Shown here: positions 29,417-37,891 of the stretch, in pieces
Numbering within the stretch: position 1 is the first letter of the stretch
How the letters are laid out: every line of letters begins with the position of its first letter
Assembly (NCBI GenBank): GCA_903929755.1
Contig: CAIYVZ010000017.1
Location: forward strand, 1-38,026
Direction of reading: 5' to 3'
Length of the DNA stretch: 38,026 bases
Origin: an uncultured Acidobacteriia bacterium
GTDB lineage: Bacteria > Acidobacteriota > Terriglobia > Bryobacterales > Bryobacteraceae
Notes under the pieces: model-generated
Told to the model about the DNA's origin: nothing
What the model saw: only the letters and a program-made list of their open reading frames with translations
The model's database searches: none
Made by a program: the position numbers and the translations under genes

Positions 29417-30285
29417 AGATCGCAGTTGCTTTGCTTGCCGCCCTGCCCGTTTTGGGGCAGTTGAGCGGTGTTGTGGATATCCACGCTCACTCGGGTCCGG
29501 ACAGCGTCGCCCGCTCGATTGATGCCGATGAACTGGTGAAGCTCGCCCAGGCCCGCGGGATGCGAGGGATCGTGCTGAAGAACCACTACGAGCCGACCGC
29601 GTCGCTGGCCTGGATCGTGAAGAAGCAGGCTCCGAATCTGGAGGTCTTCGGCGGTATCGACCTGAATCGTTCGGTTGGGGGTGTCAACCCGGCGGCCATC
29701 GAACGGATGGTGATGGTGGAAGGGGGGCTGGGCCGGGTTGTCTGGCTGCCGACCTTCGATTCCGAGAACCAGGTCCGCTATTCGAAGGAGAACCGGCCCT
29801 TTGTTTCGGTCTCCCGTAACGGCGAACTGCTGCCCGAAACGAAAGCGGTGATTGCGTTGGCGGCGAAGCATCACCTGATGCTGGAGACGGGCCATTCCTC
29901 GGCGCAGGAAGGTCTCATGATCATCCGGGAGGCGAAGCGGCAGGGAGTGGAGAACGTGGTGGTGACGCATGGCCTTATCGCGCCGGTCCAGATGACCATT
30001 GCGCAGATGAAGGAGGCTGCGGATCTGGGAGCCTACATCGAGTTCGTCTACAACGGAACGTTAGGCAAGAAGCCTGAATTCACCATGAAGCAGTATGCGG
30101 AGGCGATGCGACAGGTGGGGCCGAAGCACTGCATTCTGTCGAGCGATTTGGGGCAGGCGAACAACCCCCTGCACCCGGATGGCTGGGTGGCGTACATGGC
30201 GGGGTTGCTGAAGGAAGGTATCTCGCAGGCAGATATCGATCTGATGTCAAAGACCAATCCAGCGCATGCACTGGGGTTGAAGTGA
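29413..30285 (+). CDS. Exported DUF6282 amidohydrolase-like protein
   Basis: The 290-residue protein starts at ATG 29413, overlapping the DSD1-like stop by four bases. It has a short signal (MKIAVALLAALPVLGQ) and then a TIM-barrel amidohydrolase-like start, GVVDIHAHSGPDSVARSIDADELVKLAQARGMRGIVLKNHYEPTA, the pattern of DUF6282. Further metal-site candidates are ETGHSS, VVTHGLIAPVQMT and ILSSDLGQANNPLHPDGW. The reaction is unknown, presumably hydrolysis in the periplasm. The gene is the middle of a tightly coupled three-gene set. Confidence 0.75.
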   Translation: MKIAVALLAALPVLGQLSGVVDIHAHSGPDSVARSIDADELVKLAQARGMRGIVLKNHYEPTASLAWIVKKQAPNLEVFGGIDLNRSVGGVNPAAIERMVMVEGGLGRVVWLPTFDSENQVRYSKENRPFVSVSRNGELLPETKAVIALAAKHHLMLETGHSSAQEGLMIIREAKRQGVENVVVTHGLIAPVQMTIAQMKEAADLGAYIEFVYNGTLGKKPEFTMKQYAEAMRQVGPKHCILSSDLGQANNPLHPDGWVAYMAGLLKEGISQADIDLMSKTNPAHALGLK

Positions 30286-31163
30286 TGGACAGACGTACCT
30301 TCCTCGCTGCCACTTCTGCCGCACTGACTGCTTCTGCCCAGACGCCTCCGCTGACCATCGACTCACACGTCCACGCCTTCAAACACGACCCGGCATTTCC
30401 ATTCGCCGCCGGGGCAAAACCTCCCGCCGAAGACGCTTCCGCAGAGATGCTGCTTGACCTGATGAAGGCCAATGGCGTTGCCCGGACCGTCATCATTCAG
30501 GTGATCCACTATAAGTGGGATAACAGCTACCTGGCCGATGTTCTGAAGCGGTACCCGAAGACGTTCCACGGTGTGGCCCGTGTTAATCCCGAAGACCCGG
30601 CAGCCCCCGACCACCTGAGCAAACTCACGGAGCAGGGCTTCCGCGGTGTCCGCATCAGCCCTTCAGCCAACGCCGACGGCAACTGGATTCAGGGTCCGTT
30701 GATGCCGCCGCTGTGGAAGCGCTGCGCGGAGCTGCAAGTCCCGATGACGGTCCTGACACCCGTTACCCGGATGCCCGACTTAGTGCCACTCATCGAGCGC
30801 AATCCGGAACTAACCGTAGTTATCGACCACATGGCCGATTCGCCGCTGGCCGACCCCGCGAAACTTGACTTACTGCTCGCTTTGCAGCGTTATCCGAAGG
30901 TCTACGTCAAGATCTCGCATATGTGGTCGCTCTCGAAGCAACCGTATCCCTACCCCGACTCCAGGACCCAAGTCAAACGTCTCTTCGACCGTTTCGGAGC
31001 GAAGCGGCTGATGTGGGGTACGGACTGGCCGGTGTCCCTAAAAGAATTGACCTACGCACAAGCCGTCGAACTGTTCCGGAAGCATCTCGACTTCCTGAAC
31101 AGTGACGACCTGGCGCAGGTCCTTGGCAAGACGGTTCAACAGGTCTGGCCTTTCGGCCTGTAA
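30285..31163 (+). CDS. Tat-exported amidohydrolase-2 (TIM-barrel) protein
   Basis: The 292-residue protein starts at ATG 30285, sharing one base with the upstream stop (TGATG). The N-terminus MDRRTFLAATSAALTASAQ is a twin-arginine signal. The Amidohydro_2 motifs are IDSHVHAF (HxH metal pair), GFRGVRISPSANADG, VVIDHMAD and RLMWGTDWPVS (metal Asp). Members hydrolyse lactones or decarboxylate cyclic acids; the substrate here is unknown. It closes the DSD1-DUF6282-amidohydrolase set. Its stop is immediately next to the stop of the convergent amidohydrolase gene, with no bases between. Confidence 0.83.
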   Translation: MDRRTFLAATSAALTASAQTPPLTIDSHVHAFKHDPAFPFAAGAKPPAEDASAEMLLDLMKANGVARTVIIQVIHYKWDNSYLADVLKRYPKTFHGVARVNPEDPAAPDHLSKLTEQGFRGVRISPSANADGNWIQGPLMPPLWKRCAELQVPMTVLTPVTRMPDLVPLIERNPELTVVIDHMADSPLADPAKLDLLLALQRYPKVYVKISHMWSLSKQPYPYPDSRTQVKRLFDRFGAKRLMWGTDWPVSLKELTYAQAVELFRKHLDFLNSDDLAQVLGKTVQQVWPFGL

Positions 31164-32117
31164 CTACAACTTCGGCTGCGACGGGTCGCGGTGAACCCAC
31201 TTATAGGCGGCGAGTGAGTTCTTCCAGAAGTACTTGTTGGCCGCTTCGGCTCCCTTTGCTTCGAAGTAGGCGCGGACGATTTTGAGCTCGACGGGGTACT
31301 CGGCGTATTGGTCGCTGTTGGGCCAGTCGCTGCCGTAGAGGAGGCGATCTTCGCCGAACGTCGCCCACATTTCGTCAATAGTGGCTTTGTAGACGGCCGG
31401 GTTTTCTTCGGTCTTACCGTTGACCTTCTTCACGACACCGGAGACTTTGGCGAAGACCTGTTTGCGCTTGCCCAGTTCGGCGAGATCCATCTGGTATTTG
31501 CGGAGAACCTTCGGGTCGGAGGGGCGTTCCATTCGCGGCAGGTGGTCGAGAACGACGCGGAGGGTCGGGACCTTGTCGGTGAGGCGGACGAGGTCGGCGA
31601 TGAGCTGGGGCGTGGGGTTGGCGGAGTCCATCACGAGATCGGCATCGGCGAGGGCTTTGATGCCGGCGATGAATTCGGGCTTACCGATCATGGCGGTGAA
31701 ATCGCGATCCCAGAGGTTTCCGTAGCGGATGCCACGGAAGATGGGGTTCTTGTGGAGACGGTCGAGTTGCGAGCGGAACTCGGGCTTTTCGGGTTCCAGG
31801 TCGCCGATGTGGCCGACGAGGAACTTCTCTTTCGCGGCGATGTCGAGAACCCACTGGTTGTCATCGAACCAGGGGCTGGCTTCGACTTCAATGGCTCCGA
31901 CGACGCCGAGGGGCTGGGCGATCTTTTTCAGGCGATCGGGCAGCGCGGTCTTGTAGAGGACCGTGTCGGTCTTCGGGGGCCACGGCACGCCCTGTTTGCG
32001 ATTCACATCGAACAGGTGGATGTGGCAATCGATGATCGGGATCTTCATGTCAGCGTTCAGGGCTGCGGCGGCGACACCTGCCGCAGCGGAAGTTTGGAGA
32101 AAAGTTCGTCGGTTCAT
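31164..32117 (-). CDS. Tat-exported amidohydrolase-2 (TIM-barrel) protein
   Basis: The 317-residue protein has a Tat signal (MNRRTFLQTSAAAGVAAAAL) and the Amidohydro_2 features IIDCHIHLFDVN, FRGIRYGNLWDRD, LRVVLDHLPRM and RLLYGSDWPNSDQ. It resembles L-fuconolactonase/L-rhamnono-lactonase-type hydrolases. It differs clearly in sequence from the convergent amidohydrolase at 30285-31163, so the pair is not a recent duplication. Its ATG overlaps the stop of the globin-ankyrin gene by four bases, making it the last gene of the DUF1553 operon. Confidence 0.84.
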   Translation of the reverse strand: MNRRTFLQTSAAAGVAAAALNADMKIPIIDCHIHLFDVNRKQGVPWPPKTDTVLYKTALPDRLKKIAQPLGVVGAIEVEASPWFDDNQWVLDIAAKEKFLVGHIGDLEPEKPEFRSQLDRLHKNPIFRGIRYGNLWDRDFTAMIGKPEFIAGIKALADADLVMDSANPTPQLIADLVRLTDKVPTLRVVLDHLPRMERPSDPKVLRKYQMDLAELGKRKQVFAKVSGVVKKVNGKTEENPAVYKATIDEMWATFGEDRLLYGSDWPNSDQYAEYPVELKIVRAYFEAKGAEAANKYFWKNSLAAYKWVHRDPSQPKL

Positions 32118-33070
32118 TTCAGTCCTTTGTACCAGATGGCAGGTTGGCGGCAGTTACGGGCTCGCATCAGAGGGGTGTCCCCTTTGGTGTCACGGGCGTT
32201 GATATCGGCTCCGCAGGCGAGAAGGGCTTCGGCGATGGCGTTGTGGCCGCGGCGGGCGGCCATGTGAAGCGGGGTGCAGTGTTTGACTCCATCGGCCGCG
32301 TTGGGGTCGGCTCCGGCGTCTACCAGGGCACGGACTACGTCAGGGCCCGTTTCGGAGCCGCATTCGTTGGCCACGCAGTAGAGCGGGGTGTGGTGGCCAG
32401 CTGTTTGTTCGTTGGGGTCGGAGCCGAGGGTCAGCAGGAGATTGACGAAGCGGAGGTCTCCGGCGGCGGCCGCGTTGTGGAGGAGGGTTCGTCCGGCGAA
32501 GCGTTCGCGGATGATTTGTGCATCGGACTGGATGGCTGCGGCGGCGTGGTCGTGCAGTCTGGGGCGGTTGCTGCGGAGCATCAGAGAGAGGATTCCGCAG
32601 CGTACGGAGGCATGGAACAGGTTCAGGTCGGGGTAGTCGGCGAGGGCGATGGCTTCGTCGTCGTTGTTGCTTCGCACGGCTGCGACAAGCGCATCAAGCA
32701 TCGTCTGGGCGGTCCAGCGTTTTGCCAGTTCGGGTGACTTGAGGGGACCGGGTTCCTGGTGGATGAGGTACTTAGAGGTTTGGCGGAAGAAGTCGAGGAG
32801 GTCGGTGTCAGCACAGGCGTTTTGCATGCAGGCCAACCAGGCGGCGCGGTGCTCGGGCGTGAGTTTGAAGCGTGCATGGGACTCGCGCAGGCTGAGCCAC
32901 CAGCGCTTTTGGTCATTGCCGCCCGTATTCAGAAACTGCATGAGGAAAGCGGCGAATTCGTTGATGGCGCAGGTGAAGGTTTTGCCGGGGAAGAGCGGGC
33001 GCAGGACTGGATTGAGCGCAACTCGGGCGTAGAACGCAGTCGAGAGGCGCTGGCAGTCCTGCGGGCTCAT
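32114..33070 (-). CDS. Truncated hemoglobin-ankyrin repeat fusion protein
   Basis: The protein has 318 residues from ATG 33070; the frame is open further upstream but only as a shadow of the DUF1501 gene. Residues 1-90 read as a truncated-hemoglobin-like globin: LSTAFYARVALNPVLRPLFPG (A-B helices), INEFAAFLMQFLNTGG (E helix), and SLRESHARFKLTPEHRAAWLACM with the likely proximal heme ligand His65. Residues 91-190 are helical and unassigned. Ankyrin repeats follow at about 193-225 (GRTLLHNAAAAGDLRFVNLLLTLGSDPN), 228-259 and 265-297 (CTPLHMAARRG), with a fourth cut short after GDTPLMRARNC. No signal peptide, so it is probably cytoplasmic, unlike its exported neighbours. It overlaps both by four bases. 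A heme-based sensing role is possible; heme binding is unproven. Confidence 0.75.
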   Translation of the reverse strand: MSPQDCQRLSTAFYARVALNPVLRPLFPGKTFTCAINEFAAFLMQFLNTGGNDQKRWWLSLRESHARFKLTPEHRAAWLACMQNACADTDLLDFFRQTSKYLIHQEPGPLKSPELAKRWTAQTMLDALVAAVRSNNDDEAIALADYPDLNLFHASVRCGILSLMLRSNRPRLHDHAAAAIQSDAQIIRERFAGRTLLHNAAAAGDLRFVNLLLTLGSDPNEQTAGHHTPLYCVANECGSETGPDVVRALVDAGADPNAADGVKHCTPLHMAARRGHNAIAEALLACGADINARDTKGDTPLMRARNCRQPAIWYKGLK

Positions 33071-34466
33071 GCGAGCAGCTCCGGGATGAGGTTGCCTTTG
33101 ACGTCGGTGAGGCGGTAGTGACGGCCCTGGTACTTGTAGGTGAGGCGTTTGTGGTCGATGCCGAGGCAGTGCATCATGGTGGCGTGGAGGTCGTGGACCT
33201 CGACGGGGTTCTGGGTGATGTTGTAGCTGAAGTCGTCGGTTTCTCCGTAGCTGATGCCGGGTTTGATGCCTCCTCCGGCCATCCAGAGGGAGAAGCAGCG
33301 GGGGTGGTGGTCGCGTCCGTAATTGACGTCGGTGAGGACGCCCTGGGAGTAGACGGTGCGGCCGAATTCCCCTCCCCAGACGACGAGGGTGTCTTTGAGG
33401 AGGCCGCGGCGCTTGAGGTCGATGACGAGGGCGGCGGAGGGCTGGTCGGTCTGCAGGCACTGGCCTCGGACCTCTTTGGGGAGGTTGGAGTGCGCGTCCC
33501 AGCCACGGTGGAAGAGTTGCACGAAGCGGACGCCGCGCTCGGCCATGCGACGGGCGAGGATGCAGTTGGCGGCGTAGGTTCCGGGGGTGCGGGAATCGGG
33601 GCCGTAGAGCTCAAAGGTGGATTCGGGCTCGTTCGACAGGTCAGTTAGTTCGGGGACGGAGTGCTGCATCCGGTAGGCCATTTCGTACTGGCCGATGCGG
33701 GCTTCGATTTCGGGGTCGGGATCGGCGGCGGTGCGGATTTTGTTGAGCTTCGCGAGGTCGTCGAGGAAGTGGCGACGGGCGGAATCTTCGTAGCCTTCGG
33801 GGTTGGAGAGATAGAGGACGGGGTCGGCACCGGAGCGGAATTTGACGCCCTGGTGTTGGGTGGGCATGAAGCCGGAGGACCACTGGCGGTCGGCGAGGGC
33901 CTGGGTGTTGCCGACGCCCTGGGAGACCATGACGACGAAGGCGGGGAGGTCCTTGTTTTCGGTGCCGAGACCCCAGGAGACCCAGGAGCCGATGCTGGGG
34001 CGGCCGGCGAGCTGGAAGCCGGTCTGGAAGAAGGTGACGGCGGGGTCGTGGTTGATGGCGACGGTGGTCATGCTGCGGATGACGCAGATGTCGTCGGCGA
34101 TTTTGGAGGTATGGGGCAGGAGTTCGCTGAGCCACTGGCCGCTTTGGCCGTGTTGGGCGAATTTGAAGATGGAGGGGGCGATGGGGAATTTTGCCTGGAA
34201 GGCGGTCATGCCGGTGAGGCGCTGGCCCTGGCGGATTTCGTCGGGGAGGTCTTTGGCGAACTGGGTTTTGAGGGCGGGTTTGTGGTCGAAGAGGTCGAGC
34301 TGGGAGGGGGCTCCGTGCTGGAAGAGGTAGATGACGCGTTTGGCGGTGGGGGGGAAGTGGGGGAGCGCGCCTGGGGTTTGGTCGTCTGCGAGGAGCGTGG
34401 AGAGGGCGGCGGCTCCGAGGGTCATGGAGGGGAGGCGAAGGAGGTCGCGGCGGGAGAAGGGGCTGG

Positions 34467-34470
<4 letters not shown>
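33067..34470 (-). CDS. Tat-exported DUF1501 protein
   Basis: The protein has 467 residues from ATG 34470; a longer open frame upstream is a shadow of the DUF1553 gene. It begins with a Tat signal (SRRDLLRLPSMTLGAAALSTLL), then RVIYLFQHGAPSQLDLFDHKP and the alkaline-phosphatase/sulfatase-like DUF1501 pattern: VVWGGEFGRTVYSQG, GRDHHPRCFSLWMAGGGIKPG and the end VHDLHATMMHCLGIDHKRLTYKYQGRHYRLTDV. DUF1501 genes regularly sit beside PSCyt1-DUF1549-DUF1553 genes, as here, where the overlap is ATGA. The pair is believed to act outside the cytoplasm, possibly on polysaccharide or sulfated substrates; activity is not established. Confidence 0.9.
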
Positions 34471-37568
<3,098 letters not shown>

Positions 37569-37621
37569 CGTTCTGTATTTTACGGCTTTGTGGGTGGGGC
37601 GTGGGGAGGCTGGGATCGGGT

Positions 37622-37679
37622 GCCGGGAAAACCCGGCAAAACCCGGCGAAATGGGTGGTTTTGGGGTGAAAAACCCGGC
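37622..37679. repeat. AAACCCGGC repeats and hairpin upstream of the DUF1553 gene
   Basis: AAACCCGGC occurs three times (37629-37637, 37639-37647, 37671-37679). GCCGGG at 37622-37627 forms a 6-bp hairpin with the first copy around AAAA. They lie 54-111 bases before ATG 37568 on its 5' side, where a promoter or operator for the four-gene operon is expected. Between here and about 37890 I see no gene; the stretch is part of the 37569-38026 noncoding end. Confidence 0.45.
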
Positions 37680-37891
37680 GAAACGGGGGTGCTGGATTTC
37701 GGGAAGCCATTTGTTTTGAGGCAGATCAGTGGGTTCGTTTCGTAAAAAACACATTTTGCCGGTTTCCAGGGGGTGGGTAAGGCGGTTGGGGCCTGGATTT
37801 TGCATTGCGTTCTTCATCTCGATTGAATTGGAACATGGGGGACGTGCAGGATCTGGCGGGTGGGGATGTAAGTGGTTGATTCTGTGGGTGG

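What the first reader, a model, noticed from the sequence alone, without database searches (positions are those of the whole stretch)
32114..33070. Truncated-hemoglobin domain fused to ankyrin repeats inside a DUF1553/DUF1501 operon
The N-terminal 90 residues show globin helices A-B (FYARVALNPVLRPLF), E and F-G with a candidate proximal His65, followed by three to four ankyrin repeats. Globins are normally stand-alone or fused to kinases, cyclases or reductases; coupling to a protein-interaction solenoid suggests a heme-gas or redox switch that binds a partner. The gene overlaps DUF1501 upstream and an exported amidohydrolase downstream by ATGA on both sides, so a cytoplasmic sensor is tied in stoichiometry to an exported redox/hydrolase set. 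Together they look like a defined system: cytochrome-DUF1553 protein, DUF1501 protein, globin-ankyrin protein and hydrolase.
Basis: partly seen in the sequence, partly recalled or inferred. Interest (0 to 1): 0.78.

Follow-up and report, generated by a model that had tools for sequence, protein, structure and literature searches.

The report
Truncated hemoglobin fused to ankyrin repeats
A family of acidobacterial proteins joins a small heme-type globin to an ankyrin "docking" domain with conserved surface residues; the joining is real and shared by many species, but its placement in this operon looks like a local accident.

Summary
Real. The minus-strand gene 33070..32114 (318 aa) encodes a group II truncated hemoglobin domain (about residues 1-105), a helical region and ankyrin repeats (about 191-308). 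It belongs to a conserved family: 38 fusion loci were examined. Proximal His65 and TrpG8 are invariant in all 35 intact sequences; TyrB10 and AlaE7 in 34 of 35. Fused globins separate from 13 stand-alone globins of the same class with full support, and share marks those lack: Cys at E6 (34 of 35) and a rewritten EF/F stretch. Six residues at usually variable repeat positions (N235, R273, R274, R303, N306, C307) are 34-35 of 35. Best reading: a cytoplasmic heme-gas or redox module whose ankyrin groove docks one specific, unidentified partner. Whether it senses or catalyses is open. The claimed "defined system" with DUF1553, DUF1501 and the hydrolase is not supported: the hydrolase lies beside the fusion only here and in one close relative, this genome has about 38 DUF1501 genes, and the one other lineage with DUF1501 directly upstream uses a different copy. 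Novelty: a new domain architecture of a known kind, patchy within one bacterial class of the phylum sampled. Heme, ligand and partner are untested.

The parts
32114..33070 (-). fusion gene: group II truncated hemoglobin plus ankyrin repeats, 318 aa
   Evidence: ORF and translation; Pfam Bac_globin and Ank over cut-off
32756..33070 (-). globin domain, residues 1-105 (helices B, C/CD, E, F, G, H; helix A missing)
   Evidence: phmmer and hmmsearch against PDB; hhalign of the family to stand-alone globins, probability 99.7%
32876..32878 (-). His65 (F8, proximal heme ligand)
   Evidence: 35 of 35 fusions and 13 of 13 stand-alone globins; codon checked
32837..32839 (-). Trp78 (G8)
   Evidence: 35 of 35 fusions; codon checked
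33029..33031 (-). Tyr14 (B10)
   Evidence: 34 of 35 fusions, one His; codon checked
32969..32971 (-). Cys34 (E6), family-specific cysteine next to AlaE7
   Evidence: 34 of 35 fusions; Gly (11) or Ala (2) in 13 stand-alone globins
32501..32755 (-). variable tether and helical region, residues 106-190
   Evidence: length I103-W119 from 8 to 46 residues among 35; helices in the AF2 model, block means of pLDDT 57-87 from residue 121 to 190
32117..32500 (-). ankyrin repeats, residues 191-318, with conserved residues N235, R273, R274, R303, N306, C307
   Evidence: Pfam; ankyrin structures matched from about residue 181-197 on; column counts on 35 sequences
33067..34470 (-). DUF1501 protein with twin-arginine-like start (SRRDLL), upstream, ATGA overlap with the fusion gene; operon neighbour, not a conserved partner
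   Evidence: Pfam PF07394; translation; context test
34467..37817 (-). DUF1553/DUF1549 protein with PSCyt1 and laminin-G-like domain, operon neighbour
   Evidence: Pfam
31164..32117 (-). Amidohydro_2 protein with twin-arginine signal, downstream, ATGA overlap with the fusion gene; operon neighbour
   Evidence: Pfam and NCBIfam

Best explanation
A cytoplasmic group II truncated hemoglobin tethered to an ankyrin-repeat docking domain. Shown here: the two-domain architecture, its conservation as one family, an intact set of heme-pocket residues, and conservation of non-scaffold residues in the repeats. Inferred: the globin binds heme and a small ligand (O2, NO or CO) or changes redox state; the ankyrin groove holds one specific protein partner shared by all carriers; and the heme state either gates that docking (sensor) or is brought to the partner as local O2/NO/redox chemistry (tethered enzyme). 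I lean slightly to gating, because the rewritten, highly conserved stretch lies on the proximal EF/F side (RWW-SL-ESH-RF), which could touch the ankyrin part. The partner is probably encoded elsewhere in the genome, since no neighbour is shared by more than a few loci. Cytoplasmic location rests on the absence of a signal sequence as read by eye.
For: Bac_globin and Ank over Pfam cut-offs in the window protein and in four orthologues. Best solved relatives are truncated hemoglobins: 2bkm at E 2.2e-11 with residues 1-109, 5d1v at 9.6e-30 with the family profile; entries labelled group 1 score far lower. Of the best matches only 5v3t is labelled group II in a search; the group of the others is recalled. 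His F8, Trp G8, Phe42, Phe68 and Met82 are 35 of 35; Tyr B10 and Ala E7 are 34 of 35; CD1 is Phe (33) or Tyr (2). Fused and stand-alone globins separate with 100/100 support. N235, R274, R303 are 35 of 35 and R273, N306, C307 34 of 35, at repeat positions 8, 11 and 12 (that these positions usually vary and face the ligand is recalled). dN/dS between the window and L004 is 0.23 overall, 0.25 globin, 0.42 residues 106-190, 0.13 repeats.
Against: No heme binding, ligand or partner has been shown. The tether varies from 8 to 46 residues, which argues against a rigid signal path and fits simple tethering. The EF/F/FG stretch 55-70 is the best conserved block of the eight compared, but only just (mean majority share 0.82, against 0.80 for the CD block). 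The repeat residues were picked after seeing the counts, and no other ankyrin family was counted as a control. The window protein itself lacks helix A, the glycine motif and 8 residues between helices G and H, so this copy may be weaker than its relatives; its dN/dS is higher than that of its neighbours (DUF1501 0.11, over 391 residues; hydrolase 0.06; the convergent second hydrolase 0.06). The globin model is of low confidence (pLDDT 61) and its best Foldseek E-value is 0.045; Foldseek also uses the amino acids, so it is not independent of the sequence match.
Confidence: 0.5

Rival explanations
1. Tethered heme enzyme: the globin does NO dioxygenase, peroxidase or O2 delivery chemistry and the ankyrin repeats only place it next to a client; ligand state does not control docking.
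For: Tether length varies from 8 to 46 residues; the heme pocket (Tyr B10, Ala E7, Trp G8) matches stand-alone globins of the class, relatives of which are thought to handle O2/NO chemistry (recalled); a stand-alone globin of this type coexists in the window genome (L001), so the fusion has not simply replaced it.
Against: The proximal EF/F stretch is rewritten and conserved in the fused family, more than mere tethering needs.
Confidence: 0.33
2. Defined export-linked system: the cytoplasmic globin-ankyrin protein works with the DUF1553, DUF1501 and hydrolase proteins.
For: Four genes overlap in turn by ATGA; the same order in L004, a second assembly; DUF1553-DUF1501-fusion order also in L046.
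Against: Hydrolase beside the fusion in 2 of 38 loci; DUF1501 within the flanks in 5 of 38, against a rate of about 7.8% per locus with full 7-kb flanks, taken from the window genome (P of 5 or more 0.17; only 20 of 38 loci have at least 6 kb on both sides). The L046 copy is closest to a different DUF1501 of the window genome (78%, contig C22) and only 60% identical to the window copy. The best match of the window DUF1501 in G061 has its DUF1553 but neither fusion nor hydrolase beside it. Two independent upstream adjacencies are nominally unusual (P 0.025, after the fact and with an assumed 5,800 genes).
Confidence: 0.06
3. Decaying gene: a globin remnant that no longer binds heme, kept only as part of an ankyrin protein.
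For: The window copy lacks helix A and part of the G-H stretch and scores lower with Pfam (43 bits) than four relatives (56, 56, 69 and 83 bits).
Against: His F8 35 of 35 and Trp G8 35 of 35; dN/dS 0.25 over the globin part; the four relatives match the profile more completely.
Confidence: 0.08

Closest known systems
Group II (O-type) truncated hemoglobins: Geobacillus 2bkm, YjbI 1ux8, Thermobifida 2bmm, HbO 1ngk, Bacillus 5v3t
   Same: Heme-pocket residues and order of helices; clear sequence relationship. The group label is for 5v3t and recalled for the others
   Different: These are stand-alone; the fused family has Cys at E6, a rewritten EF/F stretch and an ankyrin solenoid; the window copy lacks helix A
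Other truncated-hemoglobin fusions: to protein kinase or nitrate reductase (introduction passage of PMC7082302); Streptomyces avermitilis globin-antibiotic monooxygenase (title in its reference list)
   Same: A 2/2 globin joined to another domain
   Different: Those partners are enzymes; here the partner is a binding solenoid
Allomyces macrogynus truncated globin in a leucine-rich-repeat protein (passage in PMC3287990)
   Same: Truncated globin joined to a protein-interaction solenoid; the nearest precedent found in print
   Different: Fungal, group 1 globin, LRR rather than ankyrin, 1129 aa, one case in the passage seen
Globin-coupled sensors
   Same: Globin in front of an output domain
   Different: They have 3-over-3 globins (abbreviations passage of PMC1457004); this is a 2-over-2 type by sequence

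Membership tests
Group II truncated hemoglobin | Profile match | tested here: met
   Bac_globin 43.4 bits over a cut-off of 21; best PDB matches are truncated hemoglobins of this group (group partly recalled); entries labelled group 1 score far lower
Group II truncated hemoglobin | Proximal His F8 | tested here: met
   35 of 35
Group II truncated hemoglobin | Trp G8 and Tyr B10 (group marks, recalled) | tested here: met
   35 of 35 and 34 of 35
Group II truncated hemoglobin | Helix A and glycine motif before helix B | tested here: not met
   Absent from the window protein and L004 as started at their only nearby ATG; present in orthologues such as L048 and L113. The claim for this copy is therefore: a shortened member of a family in which several relatives meet it
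Group II truncated hemoglobin | 2-over-2 fold | tested here: inconclusive
   Model pLDDT 61; Foldseek ranks 1-19 are hemoglobins of the truncated type, but best E is 0.045
Group II truncated hemoglobin | Binds heme | not testable with these tools
   Needs purified protein
Ankyrin-repeat protein | At least two repeats over the curated cut-off | tested here: met
   Ank 73.2 bits, three stretches; four units in register; Foldseek best match of the full-length model a DARPin chain, E 1e-5
Globin-coupled sensor | 3-over-3 globin | tested here: not met
   Bac_globin (truncated type) is the only globin family matched at E 1 or better
DUF1553-DUF1501-globin-hydrolase system | Genes kept together across carriers | tested here: not met
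   Hydrolase 2 of 38, DUF1501 directly upstream 3 of 38; 31 of 38 have at least 1 kb downstream and 37 of 38 at least 1.2 kb upstream

The most novel reading that the evidence does not exclude
A new class of soluble heme sensor in which a truncated hemoglobin gates a fixed protein-protein contact through an ankyrin groove, with the family-specific Cys at E6 as a thiol (NO or disulfide) co-sensor; output is adaptor-like rather than enzymatic.
Probability: 0.25. Interest if true: 0.7.

Novelty: new variant of a known kind. Interest (0 to 1): 0.47.

Why it matters
Truncated hemoglobins are widespread and their roles are disputed (recalled). A fused form with conserved docking residues gives a direct way to catch what a globin of this group works with: the partner can be fished with the ankyrin half. 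If ligand state changes docking, it would show a truncated globin acting as a signalling module through binding alone.

Tried and rejected
The operon as a system was rejected on context: 38 loci; the 19 best-ranked hydrolase relatives after the window's own, 55-61% identical, have no DUF1501 and no fusion gene within about 1.5 kb; one search listed many more that I did not fetch; different DUF1501 paralogues. No intact "empty site" of this operon was found.

Neighbour families: 37 upstream and 31 downstream ORFs were scanned with Pfam. No family recurs in more than 2 upstream or 4 downstream members. Against this, one cluster of large ORFs (C1) occurs in the flanks of 6 of 27 loci; the two members I scanned are TonB-type outer-membrane barrels, and receptor domains of that kind are also the most frequent downstream hit (4 of 31). 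Such receptors are numerous in these bacteria (recalled), so I do not count it as a partner. Limits: my ORF caller was crude; it miscalled the window's upstream gene, which I replaced by DUF1501 by hand; L004 was left out as near-duplicate; L052 had no upstream ORF; L038 gave two upstream ORFs; L112 downstream was left out for its length; L037, L040, L044, L059 and L111 had no downstream ORF in reach.

Stand-alone globins for comparison: 14 loci were tried, L002 gave no match and was dropped, 13 used; one is from the window genome, the rest from other genomes of the class, taken from the best-ranked hits. A partial match in G223 and one with a stop in G112 were not counted as fusions. In one search I sent the gene upstream of L113 by mistake; one search has the right one.

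Full-length structure prediction with two sequences gave no usable globin part (pLDDT under 50 over residues 1-122). The globin alone was better but still low. A hit in a viral contig (L117) is another kind of protein with a chance DPVLRPLFP stretch and was dropped. A second viral-contig scan and the plasmid search found nothing. Weak NCBIfam matches to T4SS Ank effectors are far under cut-off and fall on the repeats (one starts at residue 101); not followed.

Literature: seven full-text searches on truncated or heme globins with ankyrin or fused domains and a reference search listed no paper on such a fusion; I saw listings. The two papers were searched by term and name truncated hemoglobin and ankyrin only in separate contexts; the one was not opened. 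The review on multidomain truncated hemoglobins (doi 10.1002/iub.1630) is not held, so its contents are unknown to me. Two further searches were on acidobacterial globins and on the DUFs.

Full report
What is there. The gene runs from 33070 to 32114 on the minus strand and encodes 318 residues. Pfam finds Bac_globin at residues 6-91 (43.4 bits, cut-off 21) and ankyrin repeats, best stretch of Ank_2 242-306; ankyrin structures are matched from about residue 181-197 on. Against solved structures, residues 1-109 match truncated hemoglobins best (2bkm, E 2.2e-11; also 5v3t, 1ux8, 2bmm, 1ngk). 5v3t is labelled group II; the group of the others is recalled. The family profile matches at E 9.6e-30 (5d1v) and scores entries labelled group 1 far lower. 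The profile of 24 fused relatives aligns to 13 stand-alone globins of the same class with 99.7% probability over 116 columns.

It is a gene family, not a chance join. A scan of genome contigs with the single sequence gave one near relative, L004, a Bryobacterales metagenome assembly, 85% identical over all 318 residues. In 150 genomes of the same family, 26 (own included) hold a relative, most covering globin and repeats, some in more than one matched piece or cut by a contig end. With the 24-row profile of globin plus helical region (A1), 31 of 200 genomes of the order have a match at E 2.5e-56 or better, all in the window's family; the next match is at 1.7e-25, the level of stand-alone globins. 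In 349 genomes of the class, 18 have the fusion-type match, four of them outside the window's family (G227, G326, G344, G454). In 396 genomes drawn from the phylum only the window genome passed E 1e-30 (at most about 8 candidates of each listed genome were scored there). The samples overlap. So the fusion is an accessory gene, patchy within one class of the phylum sampled; I have not searched other phyla with the profile. That the window is from the Bryobacterales is an inference from L004.

Heme pocket. I collected 38 fusion loci: the window, L004, 25 and 11. Three (L053 broken frame, L055 with a run of N, L059 at a contig end) were dropped from residue counts, leaving 35. His65 (F8) and Trp78 (G8) are 35 of 35, Tyr14 (B10) 34 of 35, Ala35 (E7) 34 of 35, CD1 Phe 33 and Tyr 2. 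Position names were set by alignment to YjbI and recalled numbering. Fused and stand-alone sets separate with 100/100 support (the root is not fixed). Fused globins have Cys34 at E6 in 34 of 35, where the 13 stand-alone globins have Gly or Ala, and a different EF/F stretch (RWWLSLRESHxRF against RGHPRLRMRHAPF).

The window copy is shortened. It begins at helix B, without helix A and its glycine motif, and M82-F95 spans 13 residues in the window and L004 against 20-21 in the other 33. From C307 to the end it has 12 residues, where others have up to 53. Pfam scores four relatives higher (56-83 bits). Selection between the window and L004 is purifying (dN/dS 0.23) but looser than in the neighbours (DUF1501 0.11, hydrolase 0.06, convergent second hydrolase 0.06).

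The repeats. Four units fall in register. Residues that are not part of the generic scaffold but are invariant or nearly so sit at positions 8, 11 and 12 of the units: N235 (35 of 35), R273 (34), R274 (35), R303 (35), N306 (34), C307 (34). In ankyrin proteins these positions commonly face the ligand and vary (recalled; no control family was counted). This points to one conserved partner. The tether between the globin and the next helix varies from 8 to 46 residues.

Fold. A two-sequence AlphaFold model of residues 1-112 shows five helices with pLDDT 61; Foldseek ranks 1-19 in the PDB are hemoglobins of the truncated type, the best at E 0.045 and none at 0.001. This agrees with a globin but is weak on its own; the sequence evidence carries the claim. 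The full-length model was unusable over the globin and found ankyrin proteins for the rest.

The operon. Here DUF1553, DUF1501, the fusion and an amidohydrolase overlap in turn by ATGA, so they are probably translated together. L004 has the same order, which argues against an assembly error. But the order is not a property of the family. Among 38 loci the hydrolase is next to the fusion in 2, DUF1501 directly upstream in 3 (window, L004, L046), and a divergent DUF1553-DUF1501 pair lies a few kilobases downstream in 2 more (L043, L110). Flanks are uneven: 31 loci have at least 1 kb downstream, 37 at least 1.2 kb upstream, 20 at least 6 kb on both sides. The window genome has about 38 DUF1501 genes (40 matches, one gene split in two and one under cut-off). 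A DUF1501 gene within 7 kb is expected for about 7.8% of places, and 5 of 38 is not unusual (P 0.17). Two independent upstream adjacencies would be nominally unusual (P 0.025, after the fact, gene number assumed), but the L046 copy is closest to another DUF1501 of the window genome (contig C22, 78%, against 60% for the window copy), while the window copy's best match in G061 (76%) keeps its DUF1553 and is followed by an ORF that matches neither the fusion nor the hydrolase. Among 37 upstream ORFs no Pfam family occurs in more than 2, and among 31 downstream ORFs in more than 4 (TonB-type receptor domains). Receptor-like large ORFs occur in the flanks of 6 of 27 loci (two of the cluster were scanned), which I put down to their abundance (recalled).

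Mechanism. The most likely reading is a heme module docked by an ankyrin groove to one partner encoded elsewhere. A sensor that gates docking and an enzyme that is merely tethered fit nearly equally: the conserved EF/F stretch favours the first, the variable tether the second. No experiment bears on it.

Novelty. Truncated globins joined to enzymes are in print (passages of PMC7082302), and one joined to leucine-rich repeats is mentioned for the fungus Allomyces (passage of PMC3287990). I found no truncated-globin-ankyrin fusion in the listings, nor the word ankyrin in five globin papers searched by term. The review most likely to list it is not held. I therefore call it a new variant of a known kind.

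Noticed in passing
whole genome of the window (G000): DUF1501 is strongly expanded: about 38 genes here by the Pfam model, and 52-53 matches in G061 and 19 in G022 at E 1e-40 or better with single proteins.
   Followed up: partly
window 30282-31163 (+) and 31164-32117 (-): Two Amidohydro_2 proteins with twin-arginine-like starts lie tail to tail with abutting stop codons (31163/31164), weakly similar to each other (23-25%).
   Followed up: no
window 34467-37817 (-): The DUF1549/DUF1553 protein carries a laminin-G-like (Laminin_G_3) domain in its middle and a PSCyt1 cytochrome domain in front.
   Followed up: no
G000:C97 and G000:C77 (L001, L002): The same genome has two further Bac_globin genes; one looks like an ordinary stand-alone globin close to the 12 others compared, the other did not match the globin queries used.
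   Followed up: partly
L113 (G454), L111 (G326), L114 (G344), L112 (G227): The fusion occurs in other families of the class, and the globin of L113 forms a clade with L111 and L114 of another family, nested among fusions of the window's family, which suggests transfer between families.
   Followed up: partly
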